In this document: positions 24,543-49,713 of the stretch, piece after piece
Numbering within the stretch: the stretch's first letter is position 1
Layout of the letters: every line of letters starts with the position of its first letter
Assembly (NCBI GenBank): GCA_951799445.1
Contig: OX637292.1
Span: 17,239,296-17,303,295, forward strand
Origin: Pseudisothecium myosuroides
Taxonomy: Eukaryota > Streptophyta > Bryopsida > Hypnales > Lembophyllaceae
Direction: 5' to 3'
Length of the DNA stretch: 64,000 bases
Position numbers and translations under genes: made by a program
The notes under the pieces: model-generated
What the model saw: only the letters and a program-made list of their open reading frames with translations
What the model was told of the DNA's origin: nothing
Database searches by the model: none

Positions 24543-24777
24543 AGCTTGCATAATTTTTACTCAATTATTACCCAATCCCAATGAAGCATACAAAATTTCA
24601 GTGTCAAAAATGCAAAATTGGATTTTGGGTGAGTTTTTGAAGTCAATTTTTGTACTTTAACATTATATTTTATTGAAACAATTGATGGTGACTTCTCTTA
24701 ATTTAATTGCATGGATACGTAGGGAATATCCATACACACACTTTTCATATTAAAAAACACCCCCTTACGTAACAAAA
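24543..24777 (+). repeat. left arm of a long inverted repeat
   Basis: About 235 bp, by eye about 95% identical to the reverse complement of 43815-44049. The two arms flank the LTR retrotransposon. With the element and one target copy removed, they would be some 230 bp apart, and the intervening sequence is itself partly palindromic (TAACTACATTTTGGCA against TGCCAAAATCTAGTTA). So the retrotransposon jumped into an existing fold-back locus. Confidence 0.85.
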
Positions 24778-24952
24778 TCATGATCAAAGAAGAGTTCAAT
24801 GAAAAGTGTTGTATGACCAAACTTTGAAGAAATGGATATCTCTATATTTTAACTACATTTTGGCATTTCACTCTCACACTATAACTAATTCTGTACATTT
24901 CAACATGATGGTATAATTACTTGCCAAAATCTAGTTAAAATACAAAGATATC

Positions 24953-27589
24953 TGTAGTCTCTTGAAATTTTCAATTTTTTGACAATTTGCTGTGAATAGT
25001 GTAAATAGAGACAAATTGACGAAGAGTTCACACAATAGAGTAGTAATATGGACAAATTGCCAGATTAGAAAGGATTTAGAAGAAAAAAACACATAAAAGG
25101 TTTAAGATGGCAAAAGACAAGTTGACTCTACACTTCGGGTTTGAATAGTTGTCTTTAGTTTTGCATATAGCCAGGCAATTTGTCATTTTTCTCTCTCTCA
25201 CTTTCTCGGTTATCAAATATCTTTTGTCAAATTGTCTCGTCTTCATGTACTCTGAACTTCTTCAATAATATAATATTTCTTATAAACAATTTGTCTATAA
25301 GCTCTAAATTTAGATCCAGGGGTTGGACTAAATTGAGCATTCTATAATTTCCAGTCAAGATCCAGTGATTGGATCCTCTGAACTGTGAATTAATTTAACA
25401 AATTGTCTTGAGTATCCAGTGATTGGATCTCTTCGTTTACTTGTGACTAATTGTCTTCCTGGTGCTTGTGTTTTGATTGTGGAATTTATAAAATTGTGAG
25501 CTTGTTTGTGTTGATCCAATGAGTAGATTGTAACACTAGGCAACTTGTCGAATTCTTTTGCGAACCAGTGAACAGGCTCTGCTACTGTGAGAGACGTCAA
25601 GGTGATTGTAAATTCTTTGTGTAGAATTGTGTGCAGATTTCTTGTGATGAATTTATGGTTGTTGAAATGATTTGTGTAACAAATTGTCGGTGAAATTATG
25701 TGTGTGCTTACTCTGCTGGAATTATGGGTCGTGATTTATGTATTGAGTTGTTGAAACTGTGTGGTGCAAATTTGTGCGAATTATGTGGTTGTGAATACAT
25801 GTTAAGACAAATTGACTGAATTAGTTTTTGTATCATGAGTGTATGAGTTGAATTGTCGGAGTGTTACTGTGAGGAAATGGATGGCAATTTATCGGGATTG
25901 GAAGTCAATTTGTCTGTGTTGCTCTCGTAAAACGAACGAAGCAGACGATTTGTCAACCAGTCTGTCAATGGTGATGCTGCGGAGGCTGTGAGCAGACCAA
26001 GACAATTTGCCAAGCCAGGGATGCAGAGAGGAAGATCAACTGACTTCCAGCTAAGTTTTTAAATCCTTCTAATTCATAAATTTGACAAATTGTCTTGATT
26101 AATTTATATCTTTGTGTAGTTAAATTACATCTATTACATGAGTTAATAGTTTTGAAATGAGTATCAGAGATTCAGTATAGAATTGGACTTAGACAAATTG
26201 TCAAAATAGTAGAGGTGATTCATAAGAGAGAATTAGATCAAGTTTCTAATACCTGGCAGAGATATATGAAAAGTTGTCTAAAATGGTCACAATGAATTTA
26301 AATAATTGAATTATGTTGAATGGTATAACTGGGAGTGTGTGTGATTGAAATCGGGAGAGCTGAGTATGAAGCATTGAATCCAGGTATGACAATTTGACTT
26401 AGTCTCATGTGCTTGATGTATGAAATTAAATTGTATCAAATTGGTGTATGTGTGATTGAATCCTGTGTTGTGAGTGCATAGTTAAGTTGTCTAGAATTGA
26501 ATTGAATTCTTCATGATTGAAATTCTGAGATGATAATACAATAAGTAGAATAAAAACGAATTGTCTGGATCCCTGGGTGTTAGCCTGGATTTAGATTAGG
26601 GATCTAACAGACAATTTGTCTTGGATATGGTGACACTGTTTAAACAATTCAGTCACAGTGGGTCGGGATTACAGGACAAATTGACGTAGTACCAAACTGG
26701 GCCGCAGATAGTGTAGTAGTGTACAGACAACTTATTGATATAAATTTAGTTTACTGAAAATTGATTTATCCCTGAGATTAGTAGGATCAGGAGATACTTA
26801 GTGAGACAAATTGACTGAGTATTGAGTGGAGTATTGTCCTGATTGATAATTAGGTCAATTTGTATGAGTAGCGGTGAATATAGAAATGCTGTGGTTATAT
26901 GAATGGTGTGTTGGATAAATTGCCTTGTTGTTGTTGATGTTATAAATTGTATTGCATTACACACTCATTCCCCCTGCATTAGTATAGGGACAATTTGTTG
27001 TAGAGGACTGGGACTGTTTTGATACTCATTTAAAATTAGTAATTTGGCTAGCTAAGTAGTGACTGGACAAATTGTTATGGTAAAAAAAACTTTATGGTAA
27101 TTAAGGAATCTATATATTATATATAAATATATATGCGAATTGTTGCATTTAAAAGTCTAGATCATGCATGACAAATTGTTGAACAACCTGACAAATTGTC
27201 TTGAAATACCCCTAGCATACTAGACAGGACCGAGACAGCAATCATGCGTCCCATAGCATTATTTAATGGACTGGCCAACAAATTATTCCCTTGGGTATAA
27301 GAGTGTACAAATTGTCTATTAAGAAATAGTATGATAGTTCATATTGAATTCCTTTCCATCCTAGGAAACAAGTGACTATTTGACCATTCCCAAGATTTTA
27401 GAACTTCTCTACTATTTCCTGGGGTTGTTGTCTATAAATCAAACTACAAAACAAAGTAAACAAGTATCCACCATACAAAACGAGTGACTTTAGTCATAAA
27501 ACATCAGACTTATTGACCTTTCCTAGAGGAATTACCCCCCTATATTTATTGTCTTGGGGTTTTGTCGAGTAGGCAAAATCTACATTACA
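24953..27589 (+). repeat. 5' LTR
   Basis: 2637 bp, TGTAGTC...ATTACA. Contains about thirty variants of GACAAWTTGTC (exact at 26084, 26192, 26610 and 27190), roughly one per 85 bp. Has a candidate TATA box at 27120-27128. No gene; the minus-strand frames at 25355-25600 and 26746-26964 are chance frames duplicated in the 3' LTR. Confidence 0.97.
27120..27128 (+). promoter_or_regulatory. candidate LTR TATA box
   Basis: TATATAAAT lies about 470 bp before the end of the LTR, a suitable place for the U3/R boundary. The same site is at 43284-43292 in the 3' LTR. The neighbourhood is AT-rich, so this is a prediction only. Confidence 0.45.
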
Positions 27590-27592
27590 TTT

Positions 27593-27610
27593 TGGCGCCG
27601 CTGCCGGGGA
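27593..27610 (+). promoter_or_regulatory. primer-binding site (tRNA-Asp type)
   Basis: TGGCGCCGCTGCCGGGGA starts 4 bp after the 5' LTR. It matches the complement of the 3' end of plant tRNA-Asp(GUC), ...CCCCGGCAACGGCGCCA, at all but one base. This primer is typical of Athila-type Ty3/gypsy elements. Confidence 0.9.
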
Positions 27611-27959
27611 AAGGTCCTGGCTAATGGTGGCTAAAATGTAGAGTAGAAATACCTTTATTTAGATTTTATCCATATTCAGAGAAAATAAATTTTAAGAAAA
27701 ATTATCTAAAGAAATTAGATTATGTATCTTCCATTATAGAATTCTAAGACTAGAAATGGAATGACATGTATTTTCTTTATTAGAAAATTCTTAAAATTGG
27801 AACTTTTGATTTTGGATAAACTTTAGGAAGGTAAGGGATACTTATTACTTATAAAAATTTAGAAAATAAAATTTAGAAAATAAAAATAAAAATAAAAAAA
27901 TAAAAAAATAAAAAAATAATTATTATTATTATGGTAGATACCTTATTAGAGCCGTAAAC

Positions 27960-28532
27960 ATGGGTCAATGCACGAAAATAACCCAAGAAATCATAAACGA
28001 GGTTTTAGCAGATGTCTTCCCTAAAGAGGACAAAGTAGAACAACCCCCAATTCCAAATTGTTGTAAAAGGACCATACCTATAGAAACATTGTTAAGTTAT
28101 AATCGTGCTACCAACCCCTTGAAACCACCCACATCAACTTCTAGAAACATAAACTTGACAGAAAGTAGGGCATACACTAAAGCAAAAATCCAAGGTCGTA
28201 GAGAGGGTCATAATTGTCATTTTTGTGGAGAAACTGGTCACATTAAAAACACCTGTTTTAAGAAACAAGAATTTGATAGTACAAGAAGAATTCCTCCTAC
28301 CCCTTTTTCTAGACCTACAATTCCAATTCAATTTTTCAAACCACCTCTTCCAACACAACAGTATGTCTCATATGATTCAGGTTTTGAAAATATACTTAGA
28401 AGTTTGAATCATTTAGGAAATCCTAAAACGCCCATAGGAAATTTACTTCAATTAAGAACTGTTATTAACACGTTAATTTATTTTCACCCATCACAAAGTG
28501 TAATTCGTGAAATTAGGTCAAATTTACACTAG
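27960..28532 (+). CDS. leader ORF 1 with one zinc knuckle
   Basis: A 190-aa ORF between the primer site and gag. It has a single CCHC zinc knuckle, CHFCGETGHIKNTC (about residues 88-101), flanked by Pro/Thr-rich sequence, so it probably binds nucleic acid. It starts MGQCTK; a Gly at position 2 followed by Cys might be lipid-modified, but residue 6 (Lys) does not fit the usual N-myristoylation consensus. Ty3/gypsy elements do not normally have a separate zinc-knuckle ORF before gag, since those motifs sit in Gag (where this element has four more). It may be an extra nucleocapsid or a captured protein. Confidence 0.6.
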   Translation: MGQCTKITQEIINEVLADVFPKEDKVEQPPIPNCCKRTIPIETLLSYNRATNPLKPPTSTSRNINLTESRAYTKAKIQGRREGHNCHFCGETGHIKNTCFKKQEFDSTRRIPPTPFSRPTIPIQFFKPPLPTQQYVSYDSGFENILRSLNHLGNPKTPIGNLLQLRTVINTLIYFHPSQSVIREIRSNLH

Positions 28533-28555
28533 AAATTATATGTAAATGAATTACA

Positions 28556-29074
28556 ATGGGACACTTGTTTCCGTGGGAAGCTCCAGAAATAATAGACGAC
28601 TACTATTCAGGACCTTGTCTTTTTATGGCCCTTTACCGTTTATATAAAAACGCATATTTTGGGCAAGGTTTCCAGTTAAGTGGAATCCATATAAAAGACA
28701 AGCAGTTAAAAGAAAACATAGACCAACTACCTTTAGACATAAAGAGGATTATTTTTAGTAAAGTTTGGCAAAAGCTTGAACTCAAGAAAGGATTTGCTGT
28801 GAAAAGTGGAGAATTGCTTTTTGATTTTTCCCTACACTATTTAATTAGTCAATACGGGAAATTAAAATCTCAAACTAAAAGCAAAGTACCTAAAGCATAT
28901 GCTGCTTGGACTGGCACTCAAATTATAAATAGAATTTATATATTTACTTATGGACCCATGAATCCAGCAGTAACTCCACTTATCCCAGACTTTATGTGTA
29001 AAGAGAAAATAAATCCTTTAAGTCCATCGTTTAGTCTAGTCTGCCCGACTAGTTTTAGTTACCTCCGTCTGTAA
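28556..29074 (+). CDS. leader ORF 2, unknown
   Basis: A 172-aa ORF, 23 bp after leader ORF 1, starting MGHLFPWEAPE. Composition is protein-like (aromatic and hydrophobic residues well mixed) but I recognise no domain. It is in the same frame as Gag-Pol; the roughly 200 bp between them has few stops (TAA at 29072, TAG near 29138, TAA at 29279). The stop context CT|GTAAGAG could also be a splice donor, which would remove that stop; I saw no clear acceptor. An N-terminal extension of Gag on a spliced RNA is possible but unproven. Confidence 0.45.
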   Translation: MGHLFPWEAPEIIDDYYSGPCLFMALYRLYKNAYFGQGFQLSGIHIKDKQLKENIDQLPLDIKRIIFSKVWQKLELKKGFAVKSGELLFDFSLHYLISQYGKLKSQTKSKVPKAYAAWTGTQIINRIYIFTYGPMNPAVTPLIPDFMCKEKINPLSPSFSLVCPTSFSYLRL

Positions 29075-29281
29075 GAGCAATATCCCATATCGATTGTCCC
29101 GACCCGAAATCTCTACTATAAGAACCCAAGTCAAGTATAGAGGGATAACTTCGGGAGCATTGGGAGCTCGTTACCTCGACATGTTGTGATAAAGGGTCCC
29201 CAATGTTTCCCGGGGTTTTTGTTGCAAAAACTTGGACTTAACCTTTTACCTAAAAAAATTCTTTCTCTATGGCCTCTGTAA

Positions 29282-32200
29282 ATGACTGGCAAAAAGCCTG
29301 ATCGTTTATTAAGAGACGCCACACGAAAAATTCAGGCAGAAAGTAAACCAAAACATAGAAGAACAGCGGCTACTTACATTAATCCTTGTTTTTCACCACC
29401 TAAACCTCCTCCTAGTCCTGTAGATCCCACTACTGCAGAATCATCTATCAGACAATTTCAAAGATTAGTTACAGATTCTACCCAGAATGAATCTCAAAGT
29501 GATATAACTGAATCAGAAATTGATTTTGAAGTTAGTGCTAACCTATTTAAAGGATTTGAGGAATCTACAAGGGGAGAAATAGCTGCTCAAGGAACTCCCT
29601 TAACGGATACTGCTACATCTTTAGAAAGGGAAGAATTTCCTTATCTCATAACTGAAGATTCTGTAAGTCAAGTACTGCACCAATCTTCAGTTAGTCCACA
29701 AAGAACGTCTATTAGTCCTTTAAGAACACCCACACCAGTATCTCCTAGAACACCTAATCCAGTTGAAAATTTATTTTCCACACCAAAACAATTTAATCTT
29801 TCTACACCTAGACCAGGTGATTATAGAACTAGTGCTGCTTTAACAGAGTATTTAAGAAATACATGGAATGAAGAAAGTCCTAGTGTGTTAGATAGATTAG
29901 AAAATTATTTATCACCACTTAGAGACGATAGAAGAGCTTCTTCCTCTGGTTCGGCACAACCAAAGAGAATTGAATCTCCACCTGAATCTCTACCTCATTT
30001 GGAAATATCTTCAGGACAATTTATAAACTATAATTTGGACGAAAATATTAACCCTTATAGTTTGCAAGGATCACCTTTTGCATTAAGCTTAGAACCTTTT
30101 CAACCGTTCCAAAGTCTTCCACCTTTGCAACCTTTTCAAATTCTTCAAACTCTTCAATCAGAATCAGAATTATCTGAAGATTCTGATCTAGATTTAGAAA
30201 ACCCAGAATTTGAAGAAGATACGTGGGTAGAAGACTATAACATGGCACAACGTCCTTTTAATTTGGTCACTTTGCCTCAATATTATGGTCAAGCAGGCAC
30301 TGATCCTGACTACCATATGAGTAGATTCGAAATAGTATGTGCAGCCAATATGATACCTGAAGCCAATTTCCTTGTAACATTTCCTGCAACACTGCTAGGG
30401 ACTGCTCAGGAATGGTATCAAACACATAACCCATTTGTCAATTGGCAAGCATTAAAAGATGCATTTTTGACCAGATTTCGACCATTAGCTTTTACAGAAA
30501 GTCTACAGGAACGTTTAAGAACCATAAGAATGATGTTAGGAGAAACTGTTGATAGCTATTATGGTAGAATGGACTATATTTTGCAAAGATGGCGAGGTCA
30601 TGGGATTCCTGATGCCTATTTAACTGGAATTTTTGTAGGAGGTTTATATCCTCCTGAATTTAAAATATCCATTAAGGAAAAGAATCCTGTTGACCTAGCC
30701 ACTGCATTAACCTATGCTAAACATTATGAAGAAGCCAGAATAGGGGAAGATCAGATGACTAGTATAGATCTTGGTATGTATCCCCCAAATCTAGCATATC
30801 CTCCCTTGGGAAATCAAGGAGTACCCTATCAACAAGTTGTTTATCAGACACCACCCCTAAGAACATATCCTGCACAAACAATCCAACCTACCATAGCAAT
30901 ACCTCCTAAACTTGAGGTCAAAGACCCAAAGACAGATCTCTTAAGTAAATTAGTAGAAAAAATGGCAGACCTAAGGGTTCAAATCACTAATGCCCCAGTT
31001 AAAAGGTCAAAACCTAACAATACCAGGACAAATGTCTGGTGTACAAATTGTCAAGGGCATGGTCATTTACCTTCCGAATGTCCATCACCTACTACGGGAA
31101 ATACTGATAATAGATCTCGTTGCACTTTTTGTGGAGGAAATCATCCCACTGAAAAGTGTTGGAATTTAGCAGCAATGAAAGAAGATTGGAGAACTGTAAA
31201 ACAAGTCTTGCAAGTTGATTCTACTAAACCTTGGGTCAACAAAACAAATATTAATAAAAGACCTTTTTCTAGACCCAATAGTGGATCACCCTATAAGTCA
31301 AATGACAATCGACCCCGTTGGGGTGATAATTATAATGAACCTCCCGTTTGGAATGGACCTCCATCTAACCCTAACACCCACCGTTATGGTCCACCAGAAA
31401 GGGGAAAGCAAGTGGTGTGTTATAGATGTGGGGAATTAGGTCATTACTCTAATGAATGTCCCAACCCTAGAAAACAAGTAGGATACTCACCATTTTGTGG
31501 CAGATGTCATCAACAAGGTCATTTACCTGAAGACTGCACTGCCCCACCTAGAAAATTTCCACCTTCTGAGAGAGATTATCCTAGACCTAAACAAGTCCAA
31601 TTCCAAGCAGAAGGAAATACCAGACCTTCAAATCATATTTCCCATTCTATTTTTGAACCAAACTCAGAAAATGTCTTTGTAGCCACAAGAGCTACAATAG
31701 CTCAACAAAATTTACTAAACAACCAAATTTCTGATAATTTTGAAAGTGAATTTGAAGTACCTAAAATTATAATGCCAAGAGCATCTTTACAACCAAATTT
31801 AACACAAGAAAAAGAAGTGATACCTCCAGTAAAAATCCCTTTAGATTCCAACCATCCTAATAAAGAAATGACTTGGAAGGAAATGCAAGAAAAATTTCTT
31901 AAACAACCTAGTCAACCCCAATCAACTATACCACCACAAGTCATAAATCCACCAGTAAATTTACCAACAATTTCTACTAATACTATCCCTAGTTTTTATC
32001 AAATTCCTGCAAAGAGAATAAATTTAAAAAGTCAAGTTCCACCAAAACGTAAAATGCCTAGATCTATGAAATTAACATCTGGCATGGAACCATATGATGT
32101 TTTGGCTAACCTTGATAAACTTCAACCTGAAATTAGTATGAAACAATTACTAGCAATTTCTCCTAAATGCAGAAGTGACTTGAGTACAGCATTAGTGAGA

Positions 32201-35200
32201 AAAAGGGTTAAACCTTTGGAAATTCATGAAATTTCCATGGATCCAGGAGCCCCTACGGTAGATGTAATAATTGATGGATCTTTAATAAATGGAGTTCAAA
32301 TTGATAGTGGATCTAGTGTTAATCTCATGAACTTCGAAACTATGGAAGAATTGGGATTAACCACTATGACCTCAACTCCAATTATTTTAAGAATGGCTGA
32401 CCAAAGTAGAGTTAAACCTATGGGAATCCTAACACAAATTGTGACAACCATAGGTGGGATAGACTATAAAGTTGATTACATAGTGTTCAAATTCACAGAG
32501 TCTATTTCCTCATATCCCATTTTATTGGGAAGACCATGGTTATACTCAGCAAAAGCGAGAGATGACTGGGGCAAAGGAACCTTAACCATAGGTAAAGGAC
32601 TAAATAGAATTATTTTGCCTCTTTTTCCCACAAAATATGGGGGTGAAACCCAAGAGGACGGAACTAGTGTCACCTCAGAAAACCAAACGGATAATGAGAG
32701 TGAAACTAGTGAGGAAGAACAAACACAAAAAGTTAATAAAGAAATGCCTTATAAAAGTATTGGTTTAGGTGAATATTTCACCCCACTAGCAAATATAGAA
32801 GATTCAGATGATGCTATTTTGGCATGGGAAAATTCTGAAGTCCTAAATATAGGTATTGATGAAAATTCAGAATTAGAACCCGAATCCCAATCTGAGGAAA
32901 GAGAAATAGATGACATGTTTGTTCATAGTGATACCACTCCTTTACAAAGAAAAGACTTTAAAGAATCTTTAAACACACCATTACAAGACATGAATTTAGG
33001 AACTAATGAAAATCCTAAAATTATCAGAGTTTATTCTAAAATGACCAAAGTCGAATTTAAATATTGGTCTAACTTCTTTAAAAGACATAGAAGTTCATTT
33101 GCATGGAACTATACGGATTTAAAAGGTGTTCCACCTGAAATTTGTGAACACAAAATAATGCTAGAACCTGATTCTAAACCAGTGAGGCAAAGACAATATA
33201 GGATGAACCCCAAATATTCCTTAATGGTCAAAGAGGAAATTGACAAGCTTTTAGCTTGTGGATTTATCTTTGAAGTACCATATAGTGAATGGGTATCTCC
33301 AATTGTCGTAGTTCCTAAAAAGAATGGAAAACTTAGAATATGTCAAGACTATCGAAAATTAAATAGTGTGACCAAAAAGGATTATTTTCCTTTACCATTC
33401 ACAGACACCTTATTAGATGGTGTGGCTGGTCATGAATGTTATTCCTTTATGGACGGATTTTCTGGATATAATCAAATCCAAATTGCTCAAATTTATAGGC
33501 TATTAACTGCCTTTACTACTGACTGGGGTATTTATGCCCATACCAAAATGCCATTTGGTTTGTGTAATGCCCCAGCCACCTTTCAAAGGTTAATGACCAT
33601 AGCCTTTCAATTATATCTGAGAAAATTTATGGAAATATTTTTAGATGATTTCTGCGTCTATAGCACAAAAGATAAACATGCAGAATGTCTAGAAAAATGT
33701 TTTGTCCAGTGTGAGAAATATGGTATATCTATTAATGCAGCTAAGTCCCAATTTGCTGTACCTTTTGGCAAATTGGTAGGTCACATCGTCTCTAGCCAAG
33801 GCATTGCCACAGACCCAGATAAAGTTGCTATTATAGTCCAATTATCTCAGCCTAATACCATTACAGAAGTTAGAGCCTTTTTAGGTCATGTTGGGTATTA
33901 TAGGCGATACATATACAAGTATGCTAATATAGCAATACCTCTGACCGAATTAACTAAAAAGACTGAAACTCCTCCTATTTGGACAGAAGCTTGTACAAAA
34001 GCATTTGAAACTCTAAAACACAAATTAACAACTGCACCTGTCTTAATTCCCCCTGATTGGAATAAAGATTTTGAGGTATATGTTGATGCATCTAATGTTG
34101 CAATAGGAAGTGTGTTAAGTCAAAAAGATGAAAAAGGACATGATAAACCAATTTATTTTGCAAGTCGCCAATTGGCGGCTGCAGAAAAGAATTACACAGT
34201 AACAGAAAGAGAAGCCTTAGGAATGATCTTTTCTGTTCAAAAATTCAGACACTATTTGTTGGGTTATAAGTTTACTTTTCATGTAGATCATGATGCATTA
34301 AAATACATGATAAATAAACCCCAACTTAGTGGTCGAATAGCTCGATGGGTTCTATTACTACAAGAATTTAATTTCACTATTCAAGTGAGACCTGGAAAAA
34401 GTCATGCTAATGCTGACCATCTTTCTAGGATAAACCAAGAATTAGGAAGTGAACCTATAAATGATGAATTTCTTGATGCTGCCTTATTTCAAGTTGAGGT
34501 TATACCTACAGAATATGCAGACATTATTCATTTTCTTTCCACAGGACAATTCCCTTTAGAATATTCTGATAAACAAAAGAAAATGTTAGCCTATAAAACT
34601 AGCCCTTATACCCTAATTGGTGGGATGCTTTATAAAAAGGGAAAAGATGAAATACTAAGACGATGTATTAACCCTAGTGAAGTACCCTTAGTCCTAGAAG
34701 GCTGCCACACCGATGTTTGTGGAGGGCACTTTGCAGGATTAGTCACTGCCCAGAAAGCATTGCAATCAGGCTATTGGTGGCCCACAATGTTTTCTGATGC
34801 AGCAGTATATACACGAAAATGTGATCCCTGCCAGAGAGTAGGAAAACCCACACCTACTACTGCTATGCCCTTAGTCCCAATTTTAGCCCAAATTTTATTT
34901 GAAAAATGGGGCATAGACTTTGTAGGTCCAATTAACCCACCAAGTAGAGAAGGAAGAAAAAGATACATTCTTGTGGCAACTGAATATGTAACTAAATGGG
35001 CTGAGGCCCTTGCCACAAGAAATGACGATGCCAATACAGTGGCTAAATTCTTATATGAGAATATTATTACCCGATTTGGTTGCCCCAAAGAATTGGTTAG
35101 TGATAGGGGTACCCATTTTATAAATGACACCATTACAAAATTAACAGAAAAATATTTTATAAAACATAGAAAAACTAGTCCTTATCATCCAAGAGCAAAT

Positions 35201-35761
35201 GGACAAACTGAAAAGACCAATGGTATTTTGTGTAAAATTATTACCAAAACAGTCCAAAGGTCTAATATAGATTGGGATGCAAGAGTCCTAGATGCTTTAT
35301 GGGCTTATAGGACTGCTTACAAAGTTACTACTAAAAATACTCCTTTTCAACTAGTCTATGGACAAGAAGCAATTCTACCAATTGAATTGGAAGTACAATC
35401 TTTAAGAATTGCCCTAGATCATAGACTAGGTGATATGGAATCTTTACAAGAGAGAATGGTCATGTTGGAAAAATTAGATGAAACTAGACGTCAAGCCTAT
35501 TTAAATACTTTGGCTATTCAAAATCGAAGAAAAAGTTACTATGATAGTAAACTAATACCCAAGAATTTGTTACCGGATGATTTAGTTCTTTTATTTGATA
35601 GTCGATTCCAAAAATTTCCAGGCAAATTCAAAATGCGATGGTTTGGCCCGTATAAAGTTTTAAAATCATATTCTAATGGGTCTGTCGAATTGCAGGATTT
35701 TGCCGGTAATATTCATTCTACAAGGTATAATGGTTATCGTTTAAAACCTTACATAACTTGA
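29282..35761 (+). CDS. Gag-Pol polyprotein (2159 aa)
   Basis: One uninterrupted frame. Residues 1-320: low-complexity Ser/Pro/Glu-rich. About 320-500: retrotransposon Gag (LGTAQEWY, LKDAFLTRFRP). About 587-755: four CCHC/CCHC-like zinc knuckles (CTNCQGHGHLPSEC, CTFCGGNHPTEKC, CYRCGELGHYSNEC, CGRCHQQGHLPEDC). Protease: IDSGSSVNLM with catalytic Asp1008, and ILLGRPWL. RT: Asp1391 (SFMDGFSGYNQI) and Asp1455-Asp1456 (FLDDF). RNase H: Asp1602 (VDAS) and Glu1644. Integrase: HHCC finger from about 1809, then Asp1879, Asp1941 and Glu1977 (D,D-35-E), then the GPY-type motif. All catalytic residues are present, so it is probably functional. Gag and Pol are fused without a frameshift. The frame holds hardly any GACAAWTTGTC words (nearest: TACAAATTGTC at 31042). 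Confidence 0.97.
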   Translation: MTGKKPDRLLRDATRKIQAESKPKHRRTAATYINPCFSPPKPPPSPVDPTTAESSIRQFQRLVTDSTQNESQSDITESEIDFEVSANLFKGFEESTRGEIAAQGTPLTDTATSLEREEFPYLITEDSVSQVLHQSSVSPQRTSISPLRTPTPVSPRTPNPVENLFSTPKQFNLSTPRPGDYRTSAALTEYLRNTWNEESPSVLDRLENYLSPLRDDRRASSSGSAQPKRIESPPESLPHLEISSGQFINYNLDENINPYSLQGSPFALSLEPFQPFQSLPPLQPFQILQTLQSESELSEDSDLDLENPEFEEDTWVEDYNMAQRPFNLVTLPQYYGQAGTDPDYHMSRFEIVCAANMIPEANFLVTFPATLLGTAQEWYQTHNPFVNWQALKDAFLTRFRPLAFTESLQERLRTIRMMLGETVDSYYGRMDYILQRWRGHGIPDAYLTGIFVGGLYPPEFKISIKEKNPVDLATALTYAKHYEEARIGEDQMTSIDLGMYPPNLAYPPLGNQGVPYQQVVYQTPPLRTYPAQTIQPTIAIPPKLEVKDPKTDLLSKLVEKMADLRVQITNAPVKRSKPNNTRTNVWCTNCQGHGHLPSECPSPTTGNTDNRSRCTFCGGNHPTEKCWNLAAMKEDWRTVKQVLQVDSTKPWVNKTNINKRPFSRPNSGSPYKSNDNRPRWGDNYNEPPVWNGPPSNPNTHRYGPPERGKQVVCYRCGELGHYSNECPNPRKQVGYSPFCGRCHQQGHLPEDCTAPPRKFPPSERDYPRPKQVQFQAEGNTRPSNHISHSIFEPNSENVFVATRATIAQQNLLNNQISDNFESEFEVPKIIMPRASLQPNLTQEKEVIPPVKIPLDSNHPNKEMTWKEMQEKFLKQPSQPQSTIPPQVINPPVNLPTISTNTIPSFYQIPAKRINLKSQVPPKRKMPRSMKLTSGMEPYDVLANLDKLQPEISMKQLLAISPKCRSDLSTALVRKRVKPLEIHEISMDPGAPTVDVIIDGSLINGVQIDSGSSVNLMNFETMEELGLTTMTSTPIILRMADQSRVKPMGILTQIVTTIGGIDYKVDYIVFKFTESISSYPILLGRPWLYSAKARDDWGKGTLTIGKGLNRIILPLFPTKYGGETQEDGTSVTSENQTDNESETSEEEQTQKVNKEMPYKSIGLGEYFTPLANIEDSDDAILAWENSEVLNIGIDENSELEPESQSEEREIDDMFVHSDTTPLQRKDFKESLNTPLQDMNLGTNENPKIIRVYSKMTKVEFKYWSNFFKRHRSSFAWNYTDLKGVPPEICEHKIMLEPDSKPVRQRQYRMNPKYSLMVKEEIDKLLACGFIFEVPYSEWVSPIVVVPKKNGKLRICQDYRKLNSVTKKDYFPLPFTDTLLDGVAGHECYSFMDGFSGYNQIQIAQIYRLLTAFTTDWGIYAHTKMPFGLCNAPATFQRLMTIAFQLYLRKFMEIFLDDFCVYSTKDKHAECLEKCFVQCEKYGISINAAKSQFAVPFGKLVGHIVSSQGIATDPDKVAIIVQLSQPNTITEVRAFLGHVGYYRRYIYKYANIAIPLTELTKKTETPPIWTEACTKAFETLKHKLTTAPVLIPPDWNKDFEVYVDASNVAIGSVLSQKDEKGHDKPIYFASRQLAAAEKNYTVTEREALGMIFSVQKFRHYLLGYKFTFHVDHDALKYMINKPQLSGRIARWVLLLQEFNFTIQVRPGKSHANADHLSRINQELGSEPINDEFLDAALFQVEVIPTEYADIIHFLSTGQFPLEYSDKQKKMLAYKTSPYTLIGGMLYKKGKDEILRRCINPSEVPLVLEGCHTDVCGGHFAGLVTAQKALQSGYWWPTMFSDAAVYTRKCDPCQRVGKPTPTTAMPLVPILAQILFEKWGIDFVGPINPPSREGRKRYILVATEYVTKWAEALATRNDDANTVAKFLYENIITRFGCPKELVSDRGTHFINDTITKLTEKYFIKHRKTSPYHPRANGQTEKTNGILCKIITKTVQRSNIDWDARVLDALWAYRTAYKVTTKNTPFQLVYGQEAILPIELEVQSLRIALDHRLGDMESLQERMVMLEKLDETRRQAYLNTLAIQNRRKSYYDSKLIPKNLLPDDLVLLFDSRFQKFPGKFKMRWFGPYKVLKSYSNGSVELQDFAGNIHSTRYNGYRLKPYIT

Positions 35762-35776
35762 GGACAAGTTCTGAAT

Positions 35777-35795
35777 TAAGTAGAGGGCAGGCTAT
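35777..35795 (+). promoter_or_regulatory. second polypurine-tract-like site just after pol
   Basis: TAAGTAGAGGGCAGGCTAT, 16 bp after the pol stop, resembles the sequence at the 3' LTR border, TAAGTAGGGGGCTATGTA (41103-41120). It may be a relic of the 3' end of an ancestor lacking the extra ORF, or a second plus-strand primer. Confidence 0.45.
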
Positions 35796-38166
35796 ACTAA
35801 TTGGATATTTAGCAAGTAGTGTCTATATTTCTTTATAATTTTTGAATTTATTTTTTTGAAATTATATTATTAAAAATATATTATTACAAAGACAAATTAA
35901 CATAAAATAATAATCAAAGGAAATGATTACATAAGCATTACAAATTAATGAATAAGTAATGTAAGTACAATTTGACGGGGTATTAATTTTTGGATAAGGA
36001 TATTGAAAATAATACCCTGCATTAAATGAAAAGAACAATTTGAAATTTAATAATGAGCTACCGGCTGTACCGGTAACTCAGATCTTCACCCGATTAGCGA
36101 ACAACAATTTGTCCAAAGTAAGATTAGGGCAAATTGTTTGTGCGCATTGCGGCCGGTATGCGAGTGATTAAGCGGCGGACAATTTGTTGAGGTGTGTACA
36201 ATTGGTAAGCTTCTTATTTTCGGTTGAGTGAGAAAACGTGTTTTGAGAAATTGACGAGAGCAAATTGCCAAATTGAGAAGATTTAGTAAAGTTATTAACA
36301 ATTTGTCTTGGAAAACTAAGCCAGGGTTTGAAGAGCGCAAGAAGGGGAGTTTTCAAACATTATGCGAGCAATTGTTGGTTCCTCATTCTCTGAGCAAGAC
36401 ATGTTGTTTGCATTAATCAGGTTTGAATTCTTTCCATCAAACAAATTGTCAGTCTTTTAAAGAATCATGAAGCGTGACAATTTGTTTGCGGGAACTTTGT
36501 AACCCTAATTTCATGATTAAGTTATTGTAAAGAAGAACCTTAAAACACTAATCTTGAAGTTCTCAAATTGATTTAATAAGAGGATGAAATGAGAGACAAT
36601 TTGCCTAATTCTTTGTTCTGGAAAGTATTGATAGTCAGAACTCAGACAGGATTTGCCGAAAGCACGTTTAAGTTAACTGGTTGTTGTAAGATTGAGAGGT
36701 GTATGTAGAATCGACTTTGACAAATTGTCCTAGAGTTTTTGGTGGTGCTCAATTAACTGACAAATTGTTCAGAAAAGAAACTGTGCTAGTTAAGTTAAGA
36801 ATAATTCAAGTTTGCTGCAGTTGAAAATGAGAAACTAAAATCTTAATGCTTCTTGCTAATCGAATTGGAAATAATAACTAATTGTCGTCAAAGAAAAGCA
36901 AGTGGACGAGTTGTCATCTGATGAAGACTGTGAGTTTTAAAACCAGTCTCTAGTTTCAACTAATAGGGTTAAATTGTTATTGGATCAGTTTAGTTGAAGA
37001 AGGCCATATAGACAATTTGTCTAGGAGAAACTGTTTCCAAGAGAAGTGAGAATAGCAAATCGTTATACCTACTGGTAAGTCTTACAGACAAATTGCCAAT
37101 GACTGAGTAAATTACCGAGTGAACTGATGGTTTTCGAATAAAATAGGGTGCAAAACAATTTGTCTATAGAATGGCTGCTTACGAAAGATATAGACAATTT
37201 AACAGTTGTAGATCCAAGAGTTAGAATAACTGAAGGATAATTGTATTAACCAAGACAAATTGTCAGTGCCTGTTGTGAAAGGAAAATATAAAGAGAAAAT
37301 ATAAATAATTTGAGTGAAATTCTTGAAAGATGATAAAACATGATAAACTGAAAACTTGGAAACATGATAAAAAGAACAACAAGACCAATTGACTAAATGG
37401 AAGAAGAAAAGAAAGGCTGCAGCTTTGAGATTCAGAAGCCTGAGGGAGCAACTTCAGAATCAGTAAAACAATTGGTCGTGTAGATAGAATACTGATAATT
37501 TGATAATTTACAGACAAATTGTTATACCAAACTAAGAGTGAAAGTGATCAAGAATAATTCGTAATAAATCAAATTTGTTTTCCAAGAAGTGAAGTGGATA
37601 ATATGAGAATAATTTATCGAAGCATGAGGAAGCAATTTAAAGAGTGATTAAGTGAGAATTCCGAGTTGGACTCAGGAACTGCTTTCGTGAGGAATCAGAC
37701 AATTTGACAGGAAGTAAGAAATAAGTCGGTTAGCTCAGAGAAAATGAGAGCTGAGAGAAAATGAGCATAATGCGAGTTGAGAGCTGAACCACTTGAGAGA
37801 GAGATTAGCAGTATAGAGTCTAAGTCAAATTGTCAATGTGAATTCAAATTGCTTGTAACCACAGTAAGAAGACAAATTATTGAAGTATAAGAAGCTTGAA
37901 GGAGTAAATTATTCGAGAGTAAAGAAAGTTTTCCGAGAGATTCAGGGTATGACTCCCGTGAGCTTTGTAAGACAACTTGACTGAAAGTGAGACTAATATA
38001 AGAACATAATGAGAGAAAATAAGTGTGAAAGAAAATGAGAAACTTGAAAGAATGAGTGTTGAGTTATGAAATCTATGAAGAAGAGAAGCATTGAATTGAG
38101 TGACTAAGGCTGAGTGTTAAGAGTGTATTCTTTGTTTTTCTCATACTCAAATACTGAGCTGAGGTG
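35796..38166 (+). other. post-pol spacer rich in the GACAAWTTGTC word
   Basis: About 2.4 kb with no credible ORF. Exact words at 36719, 37011 and 37254, plus some two dozen near-matches (e.g. 36104, 36299, 36440, 36476, 36760, 37086, 37156, 37513, 37698). Purine-rich with many GAGA stretches. It may hold a promoter or splice acceptor for the extra ORF; I found no unambiguous site. Confidence 0.6.
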
Positions 38167-41085
38167 ATGACAAATTGTCAGATGGCTCCACCGAAAGAGC
38201 TGAAGGTCTTCCCTATTCCGCTGTTCCAGATACTAGAGGAGGTCCTTCAACAAATTGTCGAAGAACGGAAAACCCACCTCCGCTCTACAGGTTTGTGGGA
38301 GTATGTTCAAAGAGAATGGGACCAGCCTAACATGGAATAGGTGCGACAATTTGTCAAGGCCAGTAGTTTCGGACAAGTTGTTGACAAATTGATGATCCAA
38401 GGGAAACCCTGCCAATTCGATGGAGGAAGAATAGGAGAGTTGTTGGGATTTTCCCCCGAAGGAAAAGGACTCACCGCCATTTCCCCCGTGTCTAAGGAGT
38501 TAAAAGAGCAACTTTTTGGAAAGAAGTTTCAAGCTGCGAAGAAGGCAGGAGGATGGGATTTGTTGCGGGTAGCTGCTCCGCTGAGTCACTGGTTACAATT
38601 TGTCAACCAACGTCTTTTTATGGCAAGTCGTCCAGACCTAGCCACACTAGATGCTTTGTCAGCCGGATTGGCCGCATGGAGAGGACAACCGTTGGACTGG
38701 GGACAAATTGTCTACATGCAGATCAAGATGGAGCTGGCTTGTAAAAAGTCTAGAAATCCAATGGCGTTGATCTCCGCTACCTACATTTCTGAGATGGCCA
38801 GATCCACTGCCAAGCAGGATTTGCACGTGCAGCCCATTGAAACAAAATTGCTGGAGGCTGAGAGCAGCCGAGCCACGAAGACAACTTGTCAAGAGAAAAG
38901 GACCGCAGAGCACGCGCCGAGTTCAGGACTAGCGACTCCAGTCGAATCTTCTTGTGACAATTTGAAGAAAAATCCCATTCCCAAGTCAACCAAGCAGTAT
39001 AAGGAGCTGCAGACTCAAAATGAGGTGATCCTCACGGAGTTGAAGAACGCGTTGGCCAGCGAAGACAAATTGCAGCAGGAGGTCAAGGTCATCAAACAAG
39101 AGAAGGACGATTTGGCCAAGAGGGCAGAAGAACTCCTGAAGAATAATGAAGATCATGCAGGCAATTTGTTAGCATTGCAGGTTACTATGAAGAGGGATCG
39201 TGATTCATGGGAGACAATAAAAGCCCAGCTGCAGGAGAGACTTCATCTCCAAGAGCAGAGACATTTGGCTAAGCTGCAAGAAATAAAGAGTCAACCATCT
39301 CAAGACAAGGAGATAGCTGAAATGAAGACTCAATTGGAGAGCCACAAGAGGGACATTAAAGTACATCAGGAGAATATGAAATTATTGAGGCACAATGCGA
39401 GAAAGGAGAAGGAGGAATTGGAGCAGAGGCTGAAGGAAGCGGAAGACAAATTGTCGTGCGTTAAGGACCCGCGAGTACCACAGGTGGGCGAGGCCAGTGC
39501 AAGAGACAATTTGTCTAAGGAAGATGAGACTGATATACAGCTTCTCATCAACTCCAATGATGAATTGCATTCGAAAGTAGAGCTGCTAGAGAAGGAGAAG
39601 GAGCAGTTACATGAGATGATGTGGGAAAATCAGTTAAAATCACCTCCGTCTTTCTCTCTTTTCCGTACCTATGAGCTCCAGCGGGATGTTTTTCTACAAA
39701 TTGTTGAGGTTGAACAAGCAACAGTTTTGTCTCTCGAGATGTTCGAGAAAATTTGGCTTATCAGTGAGACAGGGGAGAACCAGCGTAACTTACTCTGCGA
39801 AATGATCGTGAGAGGTGATTTGATTTTGGAAGACTGGTCATCGTTATTTTTCCCCATTGTGGATATTGGAGCGCGAGCTTTGCTGTATTACGTTGTCTTG
39901 GAGAAGCAGCATCGCCGTCAGAGACAAATTGATGTTGCTGAGGAGACTGAGCGGCGGGTGCGTATTGCAGACCATCGCTTGACAATTTGTCCTGAGGAAG
40001 TCCTTCCAGACCATTTGGCCAAAGCTCGGATGATGGAGCTGAGAGAGCTAAAGGATGCCATTAAAGTTCCGGGTAAAGGACATGTAATTCACGAAGTTAT
40101 GACAAATTGTCTGGAGCGGGAGCAGATATTCCAGCGGGGTGAGCTTACTAACAGCCACTACGTTTACAATTTGCATCAGACATTTACTCGACTGGAGAAG
40201 ATTATGGATAGAGCAGCCCAGTACGACTTGGTGATTCCTGATACTAGGGACTCCAGCCAATTTGTTTTACCACCGCCCGACTACAAGCCGGCTAGCTGGA
40301 TGAAAGTCACTCCTCCAGTGCAAGGTTCTATTTTAACGAAGCAGTTTTTAGGGAAATACTACAATTTGTTTAATGACATGAATGAAGAACTGCCTATCCC
40401 ATCATGGAAAGCATTGGAGTGGCTCACGGAAGATTATGGGCAAACGGTGAAGGAGGAGCAGTCGTATGATCAAGTCTATTTGAATATTTCAGGGGACTGG
40501 CAAGTAAATCCGCCACCTGCTGTTTTGACAAATGGTCATTTTTGTAATTGCCCTAGGAGGCATAAGTGGGATCCCCATGCCACCATCGACTCCGTGGAGT
40601 ACAACTGGCCCATTATTGGAGGGAGATTCAACACGCCTGAACAATGTTCAGAATCTTATGAAGCTTTCTATGAGGCGCACCAGACTCATACCGATCCAGT
40701 CTGTTTCAGAGCTGCGGTGTTTTGCAAGTTTTTGGCTGAGATGTGCAGGCAACACAAGATTTTGGCCAACATTAATCACTTTGACCGGCAGCGACCTGAA
40801 TTTCATCTCTGCCTTAAGATCCAGCACCAGGGGACACGTTGGCACCGGATTTTGGAAGTTATGGCCATTACCCATTTTTGGGCGGGTATTCATTTATGCT
40901 TCATCAACAAATTTCCATGCACTCGCTACTGGACGTGGCAATATTGGTACGAGTCGCAAGGTGACAACAATCCAAGACTACTTGCCAGAGATCCACAAGT
41001 TGACAAGGCAGTGGCCAAGGCAAAGCGGCAGCGTCTGAATCGGCAGAATCAGAATCGTAACCAGAAGCGACCAAGGAAATATTGA
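38167..41085 (+). CDS. extra ORF downstream of pol: coiled-coil, basic-tailed protein
   Basis: Starts at ATG 38167 (MTNCQMAPPKELKV) and has one in-frame TAG at 38338-38340; the open part after it gives about 914 aa to 41085. An internal ATG at 38392 is an alternative start. The N-terminal third has a W-x-F/GF...G-GL segment (LLGFSPEGKGL) and WLQFVNQRL...TLDALSAGL...WGQIVYMQI, a pattern I associate with the putative plant transposon protein domain of gypsy elements. Next comes a long coiled coil (KELQTQNEVILTELKNAL onward), then a C-terminal domain of unknown type with Trp/His/Cys-rich parts, and a basic tail (KAKRQRLNRQNQNRN...KRPRKY) resembling a nuclear signal. Seven exact GACAAWTTGTC words lie in its coding sequence in all three frames. 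I infer a nuclear, nucleic-acid-binding protein; it does not look like an envelope (no signal peptide or membrane helix seen). Confidence 0.7.
38338..38340 (+). other. in-frame TAG in the extra ORF
   Basis: The frame is open for 57 codons before this stop and over 900 after it. In an element with seemingly identical LTRs this could be readthrough, splicing that bypasses it, or a fresh mutation. The context (GAA TAG GTG CGA) does not match the plant-virus CAA-TTA readthrough signal. Confidence 0.6.
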
Positions 41086-41102
41086 CGAGGGCGTCAATAA
41101 GC

Positions 41103-41116
41103 TAAGTAGGGGGCTA
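41103..41116 (+). promoter_or_regulatory. polypurine tract at the 3' LTR
   Basis: TAAGTAGGGGGCTA directly before the 3' LTR start TGTAG; the expected place for plus-strand priming. It is short and interrupted by pyrimidines, but its echo after pol supports its role. Confidence 0.6.
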
Positions 41117-43753
41117 TGTAGTCTCTTGAAATTTTCAATTTTTTGACAATTTGCTGTGAATAGTGTAAATAGAGACAAATTGACGAAGAGTTCACACAAT
41201 AGAGTAGTAATATGGACAAATTGCCAGATTAGAAAGGATTTAGAAGAAAAAAACACATAAAAGGTTTAAGATGGCAAAAGACAAGTTGACTCTACACTTC
41301 GGGTTTGAATAGTTGTCTTTAGTTTTGCATATAGCCAGGCAATTTGTCATTTTTCTCTCTCTCACTTTCTCGGTTATCAAATATCTTTTGTCAAATTGTC
41401 TCGTCTTCATGTACTCTGAACTTCTTCAATAATATAATATTTCTTATAAACAATTTGTCTATAAGCTCTAAATTTAGATCCAGGGGTTGGACTAAATTGA
41501 GCATTCTATAATTTCCAGTCAAGATCCAGTGATTGGATCCTCTGAACTGTGAATTAATTTAACAAATTGTCTTGAGTATCCAGTGATTGGATCTCTTCGT
41601 TTACTTGTGACTAATTGTCTTCCTGGTGCTTGTGTTTTGATTGTGGAATTTATAAAATTGTGAGCTTGTTTGTGTTGATCCAATGAGTAGATTGTAACAC
41701 TAGGCAACTTGTCGAATTCTTTTGCGAACCAGTGAACAGGCTCTGCTACTGTGAGAGACGTCAAGGTGATTGTAAATTCTTTGTGTAGAATTGTGTGCAG
41801 ATTTCTTGTGATGAATTTATGGTTGTTGAAATGATTTGTGTAACAAATTGTCGGTGAAATTATGTGTGTGCTTACTCTGCTGGAATTATGGGTCGTGATT
41901 TATGTATTGAGTTGTTGAAACTGTGTGGTGCAAATTTGTGCGAATTATGTGGTTGTGAATACATGTTAAGACAAATTGACTGAATTAGTTTTTGTATCAT
42001 GAGTGTATGAGTTGAATTGTCGGAGTGTTACTGTGAGGAAATGGATGGCAATTTATCGGGATTGGAAGTCAATTTGTCTGTGTTGCTCTCGTAAAACGAA
42101 CGAAGCAGACGATTTGTCAACCAGTCTGTCAATGGTGATGCTGCGGAGGCTGTGAGCAGACCAAGACAATTTGCCAAGCCAGGGATGCAGAGAGGAAGAT
42201 CAACTGACTTCCAGCTAAGTTTTTAAATCCTTCTAATTCATAAATTTGACAAATTGTCTTGATTAATTTATATCTTTGTGTAGTTAAATTACATCTATTA
42301 CATGAGTTAATAGTTTTGAAATGAGTATCAGAGATTCAGTATAGAATTGGACTTAGACAAATTGTCAAAATAGTAGAGGTGATTCATAAGAGAGAATTAG
42401 ATCAAGTTTCTAATACCTGGCAGAGATATATGAAAAGTTGTCTAAAATGGTCACAATGAATTTAAATAATTGAATTATGTTGAATGGTATAACTGGGAGT
42501 GTGTGTGATTGAAATCGGGAGAGCTGAGTATGAAGCATTGAATCCAGGTATGACAATTTGACTTAGTCTCATGTGCTTGATGTATGAAATTAAATTGTAT
42601 CAAATTGGTGTATGTGTGATTGAATCCTGTGTTGTGAGTGCATAGTTAAGTTGTCTAGAATTGAATTGAATTCTTCATGATTGAAATTCTGAGATGATAA
42701 TACAATAAGTAGAATAAAAACGAATTGTCTGGATCCCTGGGTGTTAGCCTGGATTTAGATTAGGGATCTAACAGACAATTTGTCTTGGATATGGTGACAC
42801 TGTTTAAACAATTCAGTCACAGTGGGTCGGGATTACAGGACAAATTGACGTAGTACCAAACTGGGCCGCAGATAGTGTAGTAGTGTACAGACAACTTATT
42901 GATATAAATTTAGTTTACTGAAAATTGATTTATCCCTGAGATTAGTAGGATCAGGAGATACTTAGTGAGACAAATTGACTGAGTATTGAGTGGAGTATTG
43001 TCCTGATTGATAATTAGGTCAATTTGTATGAGTAGCGGTGAATATAGAAATGCTGTGGTTATATGAATGGTGTGTTGGATAAATTGCCTTGTTGTTGTTG
43101 ATGTTATAAATTGTATTGCATTACACACTCATTCCCCCTGCATTAGTATAGGGACAATTTGTTGTAGAGGACTGGGACTGTTTTGATACTCATTTAAAAT
43201 TAGTAATTTGGCTAGCTAAGTAGTGACTGGACAAATTGTTATGGTAAAAAAAACTTTATGGTAATTAAGGAATCTATATATTATATATAAATATATATGC
43301 GAATTGTTGCATTTAAAAGTCTAGATCATGCATGACAAATTGTTGAACAACCTGACAAATTGTCTTGAAATACCCCTAGCATACTAGACAGGACCGAGAC
43401 AGCAATCATGCGTCCCATAGCATTATTTAATGGACTGGCCAACAAATTATTCCCTTGGGTATAAGAGTGTACAAATTGTCTATTAAGAAATAGTATGATA
43501 GTTCATATTGAATTCCTTTCCATCCTAGGAAACAAGTGACTATTTGACCATTCCCAAGATTTTAGAACTTCTCTACTATTTCCTGGGGTTGTTGTCTATA
43601 AATCAAACTACAAAACAAAGTAAACAAGTATCCACCATACAAAACGAGTGACTTTAGTCATAAAACATCAGACTTATTGACCTTTCCTAGAGGAATTACC
43701 CCCCTATATTTATTGTCTTGGGGTTTTGTCGAGTAGGCAAAATCTACATTACA
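41117..43753 (+). repeat. 3' LTR
   Basis: 2637 bp, same length as the 5' LTR and identical in every stretch I compared. It ends ATTACA and is followed by the ATATC target duplication. Confidence 0.97.
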
Positions 43754-43814
43754 ATATCTATTTCACAAAGTTAGGGCATATGGCACCTCATATTGAATTC
43801 TTAATAGATTATAT

Positions 43815-44049
43815 TTTTGTTACTTAAGGGGGTGTTTTTTAATATGAAAGATGTGCGTACGGATGTTCCCTATGTATCCATGCAATTAAATTAAGAGAAG
43901 TCACCATCATTTGTTTCAATAAAATATAATGTTAAAGTACAAAAATTGAGTTCAAAAACTCACCCAAAATCCAATTTTGCATTTTTGACACTGAAATTTC
44001 GTATGCTTCATTGGGATTGGGTAATAATTGAGTGAAAATTATGCAAGCC
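43815..44049 (-). repeat. right arm of the long inverted repeat
   Basis: Reverse complement of 24543-24777 with about 95% identity by eye. See the left arm. Weaker similarity continues outward on both sides. Confidence 0.85.
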
Positions 44050-48707: not shown

Positions 48708-48792
48708 GGCACCCAATTTTTGTACACATCATACTTCAAATTAAAATAAACAAAAACCTTCTTGCTATGAATTGTAATAATTATTTGAGAAG

Positions 48793-49689: not shown

Positions 49690-49713
49690 CTTATTGTTTA
49701 AAGGTTATGGTTT

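What the first reader, a model, noticed from the sequence alone, without database searches (positions are those of the whole stretch)
24953..43753. A near-palindromic 11-bp word, GACAAWTTGTC, saturates an intact LTR retrotransposon
I count at least 18 exact copies (26084, 26192, 26610, 27190 and their 3' LTR equivalents; 36719, 37011, 37254; 38169, 38345, 38702, 39445, 39505, 39981, 40101), plus dozens of one- or two-mismatch copies, about one per 85 bp in the LTRs. With equal base frequencies fewer than 0.01 exact copies would be expected in 18.8 kb. The copies are not periodic, so tandem duplication is not the cause. A palindrome suits a dimeric DNA-binding protein. Inference: these are binding sites for an element-encoded or host protein controlling transcription, silencing escape, packaging or integration. 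Closest precedent I know: VANC-type anti-silencing by Arabidopsis VANDAL transposons.
Basis: partly seen in the sequence, partly recalled or inferred. Interest (0 to 1): 0.88.

Follow-up and report, generated by a model that had tools for sequence, protein, structure and literature searches.

The report
Retrotransposon families with private DNA passwords
A plant-type jumping gene, and several of its relatives in the same genome, are each peppered with their own short palindromic DNA word, which changes together with an accessory protein that they carry, as if each family marks its own DNA for its own protein.

Summary
Confirmed. GACAAWTTGTC occurs 18 times in the window, always inside a Ty3/gypsy LTR retrotransposon (0.06 expected). 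Sites fill the LTRs, 3' spacer and extra 3' ORF, there in all reading frames and beyond what its codons explain; gag-pol and 5'UTR are nearly free. LTR sites change at about half the rate of flanking DNA. Family B shares 94-96% of A's integrase end but only 38-40% of the ORF's N-terminal domain, and has a different word: word and ORF travel together, apart from pol. Another copy's LTR, mostly unalignable to A's but beside a 96% identical ORF, carries A's word. Best reading: a dimeric, element-encoded DNA-binding protein (the 3' ORF) recognising its own family, most likely to activate or un-silence it, as VANC does in VANDAL DNA transposons. Binding and function are inferred. The ORF is not detectably VANC (no DUF1985 hit), and the words are dispersed palindromes, not oriented tandem arrays.

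The parts
24953..27589 (+). 5' LTR (2637 bp, TGTAG...TTACA), with 32 word sites at <=2 mismatches between 24981 and 27384
   Evidence: exact repeat with 3' LTR; site list; EM on the LTR alone gives GACAAWTTGTC
41117..43753 (+). 3' LTR, identical to the 5' LTR, same sites
24948..24952 (+). target-site duplication ATATC (left)
   Evidence: read
43754..43758 (+). target-site duplication ATATC (right)
   Evidence: read
27593..27610 (+). primer binding site TGGCGCCGCTGCCGGGGA (tRNA-Asp type by recall)
   Evidence: read; tRNA assignment recalled, not tested
29282..35761 (+). gag-pol ORF, 2159 aa: gag, zinc knuckle, protease (weak), RT, RNase H, integrase; almost word-free
   Evidence: Pfam; 1 site at <=1 mismatch against 0.42 expected under synonymous shuffling
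35762..38181 (+). word-rich spacer between integrase and the 3' ORF (sites 35891-38179)
   Evidence: EM 121 against 14 in shuffles
38182..41085 (+). extra 3' ORF (env position): N-terminal domain weakly like PF20167, coiled-coil-like middle, conserved C-terminal domain, basic tail; this copy has an in-frame stop near the start and is open 38341-41085 (914 aa). Proposed reader of the word
   Evidence: words in all frames, 9 against 1.83 under synonymous shuffling, max 6 of 1000 (counted on 38341-41082)
41081..41098 (+). hairpin ATTGACG-AGGG-CGTCAAT containing the ORF stop codon, with counterparts in relatives with and without a word
   Evidence: four loci folded
41104..41116 (+). polypurine tract AAGTAGGGGGCTA next to the 3' LTR, similar in relatives

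Best explanation
The words are dense binding sites for a dimeric DNA-binding protein that the element itself encodes, most likely in the ORF between integrase and the 3' LTR. Protein and word change together, so that each of several retrotransposon families owns a private palindrome (A GACAAWTTGTC, B GTCAAWTTGAC, C about GGCNAWTNGCC, E GWCWAWTWGWC, F CCAANTTGG, G CWATWG). By binding the LTRs and the 3' region of its own copies the protein would keep them open or switch them on against host silencing, without touching host genes or rival families. Shown: the enrichment, the palindromic symmetry, constraint on the sites in family A, an excess of sites in the coding sequence beyond codon-preserving shuffles, family-specific words, and co-inheritance of word with ORF rather than with pol.
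For: Unsupervised palindromic EM: A 90-146, A2 140 and 153, B 114-243 (4 of 4 loci), C 68-100, D 92, E 85 and 121, F 154, G 86-87 (even width), against 11-24 for shuffles of the same loci (one to three per locus, dinucleotide, mononucleotide). Word-by-locus matrix nearly diagonal, E's degenerate word also matching A and B. Base next to the CAAWTTG core: A 92/128 A, B 39/70 T, C 19/26 and 18/24 G; chi2 112, p 8e-22 for window, L031 and L050; C in family F. Same nucleus, near-same pol: integrase end 94-96% identical between A and the three B elements whose ORF lies within 3 kb, yet ORF N-terminal domain 38-40% identical (L031, L036) and word different. L056: first 1600 bp of LTR almost unalignable to A, ORF 96% identical, 13 A words there, EM on the whole 2263-bp stretch 107. 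LTR sites change at 0.068-0.088 against means of 0.147-0.186 for shifted positions, 0 of 58 shifts as low in 4 of 4 comparisons. Codon-preserving shuffles: A 9 vs 1.8, B 7/5/8 vs 1.1, E 10 vs 2.4, C 7-8 vs 1.4-1.7 (relaxed word), F 8 vs 0.7, G 23 vs 5.7, p <= 0.001 each. Palindromes with a 0-1 nt centre cannot form hairpins, which points to duplex DNA.
Against: No binding, expression or methylation data. The ORF has no recognised DNA-binding domain; both structure models were useless (mean pLDDT 38.7 and 42.4). Nine of 21 ORF-bearing loci of the A-E/x group (window included) have no word that I could see, so the ORF can persist without one. The EM score alone is not proof: on six of these nine without masking it also reached 51-119 by fitting AT-rich or GC-rich stretches, and after masking two (L034, L051) still gave 38-79 at the palindromic widths with formless GC-rich matrices. 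In A-E against x the word follows the N-terminal domain, but family F has a word and no detectable N-terminal domain, so the reading domain is unknown. Site conservation in family B is mixed (3, 8, 0 and 13 of 58 shifts as low). Family words C-G were derived partly from the loci on which they were then counted; with the strict word GGCAAWTTGCC the excess in the C ORFs is weak (2 vs 0.25, p 0.02; 1 vs 0.24, p 0.22).
Confidence: 0.57

Rival explanations
1. Host transcription factors bind the words; the elements have recruited different members of a host TF family, and word differences reflect niche partitioning among host TFs (as ONSEN uses heat-shock factors; recalled).
For: LTRs often recruit host TFs (recalled); word cores are similar across A-E, as for paralogous TFs; nine ORF-bearing relatives lack words, so ORF and word can be uncoupled.
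Against: Sites inside the ORF in all frames and in the 3' spacer, kilobases from the 5' LTR; word changes go with ORF changes while the integrase end stays 94-96% identical; the single relative read in which no ORF was detected has no word (3.5 kb read); the listed part of the genome-wide hits is near background outside the family.
Confidence: 0.2
2. The element-encoded protein binds the words, but for a replication-cycle step (cDNA compaction or nuclear retention, self-recognition for integration, template choice between co-packaged families), not for chromatin or transcription.
For: Sites are spread over LTRs and the 3' third rather than clustered at a promoter; the protein sits where env or accessory proteins sit.
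Against: 5'UTR and gag-pol, over two fifths of the element, are almost free of sites; VANC, the closest studied analogue, acts on chromatin (PMC5735166, sections read).
Confidence: 0.15
3. The words are RNA signals (packaging, dimerisation or RNA-protein binding).
For: Sites are transcribed if the whole element is; intermolecular RNA duplexes through palindromes are conceivable.
Against: Sites avoid the 5'UTR, where packaging signals usually lie (recalled); a hairpin with a 0-1 nt loop cannot form; palindromic words are what duplex DNA recognition predicts.
Confidence: 0.04
4. Neutral origin: words spread by slippage, gene conversion or mutational bias and have no function.
For: Recombination among these elements is plain: LTR matches are mosaic and the last 177 bp of a B LTR are 97% identical to A's; in family B constraint on sites is weak or absent in three of four tests.
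Against: Sites are dispersed, not tandem; in family A they diverge at half the rate of their surroundings; they exceed codon-preserving shuffles in coding DNA; different families have different words.
Confidence: 0.04

Closest known systems
VANC anti-silencing proteins and their motifs in Arabidopsis VANDAL (MULE) transposons (Hosaka 2017, PMC5735166, results and discussion read; Sasaki 2023, PMC10398659, abstract read)
   Same: Many copies of a short motif within the element, different motifs in related families (VANC21 YAGTATTAY; VANC6 AGTTGTCC/AGTTGTAC), an element-specific extra gene with conserved and variable parts, low motif density elsewhere.
   Different: DNA transposon, not LTR retrotransposon; motif arrayed in one orientation, often as tandem repeats, mainly in non-coding DNA; proteins carry DUF1985/DUF287. 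Here words are palindromes, dispersed, also inside the ORF's coding sequence, and no such domain is detected.
TnpA and its subterminal repeats in En/Spm (recalled; one search found no paper holding all five terms)
   Same: Element-encoded DNA-binding protein with many short sites in its own element, linked to demethylation.
   Different: Sites lie at the ends of a DNA transposon and serve excision; as far as I recall an unrelated protein, not compared here.
Additional ORFs of plant LTR retrotransposons (Athila/Tat; PMC6317226 and PMC7264820, passages read)
   Same: ORF between pol and 3' LTR, plant-specific domains, proposed regulatory role.
   Different: In the passages read neither paper connects such an ORF with a DNA word; here several families have one each.
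Foamy-virus Tas-type LTR transactivators (recalled)
   Same: Transactivator encoded near the 3' LTR that binds its own LTR.
   Different: Few sites, animal retrovirus; protein not compared here.

Membership tests
VANC-type anti-silencing system | VANC protein domains DUF1985/DUF287 | tested here: not met
   Pfam scans: whole window ORF up to E=0.1, no family; four ORF pieces of families A, B, C up to E=10, only PF20167 (below its cut-off) and chance hits of coiled-coil type
VANC-type anti-silencing system | Carried by a VANDAL/MULE DNA transposon | tested here: not met
   LTRs, TSD, PBS, gag-pol with RT and integrase
VANC-type anti-silencing system | Dense short motif in the element, different in related families | tested here: met
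VANC-type anti-silencing system | Motifs in same orientation, often as tandem repeats, mainly in non-coding DNA | tested here: not met
   palindromic, dispersed, also in coding DNA
VANC-type anti-silencing system | Protein binds the motif and removes DNA methylation | not testable with these tools
   needs binding and bisulfite data
Ty3/gypsy LTR retrotransposon | LTRs, PBS, PPT, gag, RT-RNaseH-integrase order | tested here: met
Athila/Tat (OTA) clade | RT phylogeny in the OTA clade | not tested
   no reference RT set at hand
Athila/Tat (OTA) clade | Athila: no second (archaeal-type) RNase H; eORF and large non-coding regions | tested here: inconclusive
   only one RNase H stretch found, no chromodomain hit, eORF present; PF03078 Athila ORF-1 not found
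PF20167 (putative plant transposon protein) | Score above Pfam's cut-off of 45 bits | tested here: not met
   15.3, 20.3 and 21.8 bits at the ORF N-terminus in families A, B, C: a distant resemblance

The most novel reading that the evidence does not exclude
A whole lineage of LTR retrotransposons runs a diversifying self-recognition code: each family encodes a DNA-binding protein and rewrites its own LTRs, spacer and even coding DNA with that protein's palindrome, and new families arise when word and protein switch together on a nearly unchanged pol backbone. All four bases are used at one symmetric position of a shared CAANTTG core (A in family A, T in B, G in C, C in F), and one family (G) has moved to a different core.
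Probability: 0.45. Interest if true: 0.93.

Novelty: new variant of a known kind. Interest (0 to 1): 0.86.

Why it matters
As far as I know, only DNA transposons were known to use sequence-specific anti-silencing with co-evolving motifs. Finding the same logic in LTR retrotransposons, the main component of many plant genomes, with an apparently different protein and a cleaner (palindromic) code, would suggest that private recognition codes are a general way for transposons to escape silencing while sparing the host. Six words in one nucleus also offer a natural series for working out how a new DNA-binding protein reads its site and how transposon families split.

Tried and rejected
Protein homology: a single-sequence search found nothing at E <= 0.001 among 7991 scored candidates; the profile found two JGI metagenome proteins among 7992, 35% and 32% identical over 25% and 32% of the query, without informative names. 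Solved structures: 31 matches at E <= 1, best 0.13, mostly coiled-coil proteins. Structure models: two, both useless, so no fold search was made.

A is 35-40% identical to B, C and D there but 22-29% to x, whereas in the C-terminal domain A is 46-49% identical to B, C and D and 47-50% to x. The C-terminal tree, however, also puts the three x rows together (97/96, 8 rows). I gave the idea up as a firm claim when family F showed a word but no detectable N-terminal domain.

Regular spacing: significant only in A's LTR (CV 0.42 against 0.81, none of 4000 draws as low), not in the spacer, ORF or family B; no helical phasing seen. Words in x families: widths 10-12, palindromic and free, gave nothing beyond composition that I could recognise. 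An apparent second word in L048 is a tandem array. Host identification by photosystem genes did not complete.

Literature: 8 searches; in the titles and abstracts listed I saw no paper on an LTR retrotransposon with family-specific palindromes or its own anti-silencing DNA-binding protein. This covers the open-licence part of PMC only, and long result lists were cut.
Full report
Observation. All 18 exact GACAAWTTGTC copies in the window lie in the element (shuffles 0.06). Up to two mismatches give 132 against 26.9. Densities at up to one mismatch are 8.7 per kb in the LTRs, 6.6 in the spacer, 3.4 in the 3' ORF, 0.15 in gag-pol, 0 in the 5'UTR, and 0.04 and 0.00 per kb left and right of the element. 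An EM motif search that is told only 'palindrome, 11 bp' returns the same word from LTR, spacer and ORF taken apart.

The element. Two identical 2637-bp LTRs, 5-bp target duplication ATATC, a primer site next to the 5' LTR, gag-pol with RT, RNase H and integrase, a polypurine tract, and an extra ORF in the env position. The ORF of this copy is interrupted near its start; 8 of 64 listed matches in the genome have an open frame of 975 aa without stops. The window lies in a 388-Mb eukaryotic genome. The host was not identified; legume-lectin and kinase ORFs nearby and the plant transposon domain suggest a plant.

Constraint on the sites. In LTRs that are 82-87% identical to the window's, site bases changed at 0.068-0.088 per base, shifted positions at 0.147-0.186 on average, and 0 of 58 shifts were as low in each of 4 comparisons; random placement was as low in 2.4, 1.6, 0 and 2.3% of 2000 draws. 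These LTRs are related, so the four are not independent. Sites also come and go: some are lost in the relatives, and one exact site appears where the window has none. In the ORF the word exceeds a codon-preserving shuffle (9 against 1.83, maximum 6 of 1000) in all three frames; gag-pol does not (1 against 0.42), though its count of the bare core CAAWTTG is slightly raised (6 against 3.1, p 0.04).

Other families, other words. I read 20 further loci with the ORF. With the window, 12 of 21 have a palindromic word and 9 have none. Family B (L031, L036, L038, L040) has GTCAAWTTGAC; C (L037, L039, L050) about GGCNAWTNGCC; E (L048, L055) GWCWAWTWGWC; D (L042) a degenerate GNCNAWT; A2 (L032) GNCAAWTTGNC with A preferred. 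The nine without: L033, L034, L035, L041, L049, L051, L052, L053, L054. Of these, L034, L035, L051, L052, L053 and L054 gave EM scores of 51-119 without masking, L033, L041 and L049 of 21-25; the high ones fit AT-rich or GC-rich stretches, not a word. After masking, seven gave 14-26 at the palindromic widths (shuffles 12-30), and L034 and L051 38-79 with formless GC-rich matrices. Three more distant elements were chosen only by their integrase. Two have quite different words: F (L063; integrase 65%, ORF C-terminal part 29% identical) CCAANTTGG, 18 exact in 4.9 kb, none in the window's element; G (L064; 67%, 25%) CWATWG, 11.4 per kb against 0.9-3.6 per kb in the other loci. The third, L065 (integrase 52%, no ORF detected in the 3.5 kb read), has none. 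The matrix of words by loci is close to diagonal, E's degenerate word excepted. For A, B and C the base beside the shared core differs with p 8e-22.

Word and ORF travel together. The integrase end is 94-96% identical between A and the three B elements whose ORF lies within 3 kb (C5, C6, C11), 80-83% for two C and 82-90% for eight x elements (paired and the loci by position), while the ORF N-terminal domain is 38-40% identical to B's and the word differs. For E the nearest integrase is 8-12 kb away and I do not pair it. Conversely, the LTR of L056 cannot be aligned with A's over most of its first 1600 bp, yet its ORF is 96% identical to A's and it carries 13 A words there. Six further LTR stretches of this type (L057-L062) have A's word too; their ORFs were not checked. 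In comparisons of this LTR group, site bases change less than shifted ones (0 of 58 in 4 of 5 tests, 1 of 58 in the fifth), but in family B the outcome is mixed (3, 8, 0, 13 of 58).

Coding DNA. Each family's own word exceeds codon-preserving shuffles in its own ORF: A2 6 against 0.8, B 7, 5 and 8 against 1.1, E 10 against 2.4, F 8 against 0.7, G 23 against 5.7, C 7-8 against 1.4-1.7 with the relaxed word. With the strict word GGCAAWTTGCC, C gives only 2 against 0.25 and 1 against 0.24.

Mechanism. A palindrome with a centre of one or zero bases points to a dimer on duplex DNA. The ORF has a coiled-coil-like middle and a basic tail, compatible with a nuclear dimer. Since the word follows the ORF and not pol, the ORF product is the best candidate reader. 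That it opens or activates its own copies is inferred from VANC21 and VANC6, which bind family-specific motifs and remove methylation (PMC5735166, results and discussion read; PMC10398659, abstract read). Inside the words of A, B, F and G no cytosine lies in a CG or CHG context; this is read from the words, a remark and not a test. In the 16 ORF ends looked at, with and without words, much the same end recurs: ORF stop in an inverted repeat, polypurine tract, LTR start, with variation (four folded).

Limits. The reading domain is unknown: in A-E against x the word follows the N-terminal domain, but F lacks a detectable one, and the C-terminal tree groups x as well. Several relatives are damaged copies. 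The words of C-G were found partly on the loci used for counting. Genome-wide counts exist for A's word only (774 against 35 for its reversal, roughly 360 by extrapolated shuffling).

Verdict. Real, strong and more general than the finding claimed; an analogue of VANC in LTR retrotransposons, with an apparently different protein and a palindromic code. Function unproven.

Noticed in passing
window 24535-24826 and 43766-44057: The retrotransposon sits inside a 292-bp inverted repeat (90% complementary), so it was probably inserted into a fold-back type element whose arms lie about 130 bp apart without it.
   Followed up: no
window 41081-41098; L031, L039, L053 and others: A 7-bp-stem hairpin ATTGACG..CGTCAAT contains the ORF stop codon next to the polypurine tract and has counterparts in families with and without words.
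   Followed up: partly
window 5843-6064 and 20201-20421: Two long hairpins (arms 111 and 107 bp, 89% and 99% complementary), related to each other.
   Followed up: no
window 20396-22774 (-): hAT transposase pieces (DUF659, hAT dimerisation domain).
   Followed up: partly
window 48685-49699 and 50109-50452: Tandem repeats of about 252 bp and 91 bp; the first may explain a CG-containing palindromic signal in a control stretch.
   Followed up: no
window 7146-8291 and 9668-10879 (-): Protein kinase and legume-lectin domains on one strand, perhaps one lectin receptor kinase gene.
   Followed up: no
L031:7198-7374 against window LTR end: The last 177 bp of a family B LTR are 97% identical to family A although the rest gave no further match: recent recombination or strong constraint.
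   Followed up: no
L048:112-671: Tandem array of TTTCATCCA-like units in a family E spacer.
   Followed up: partly
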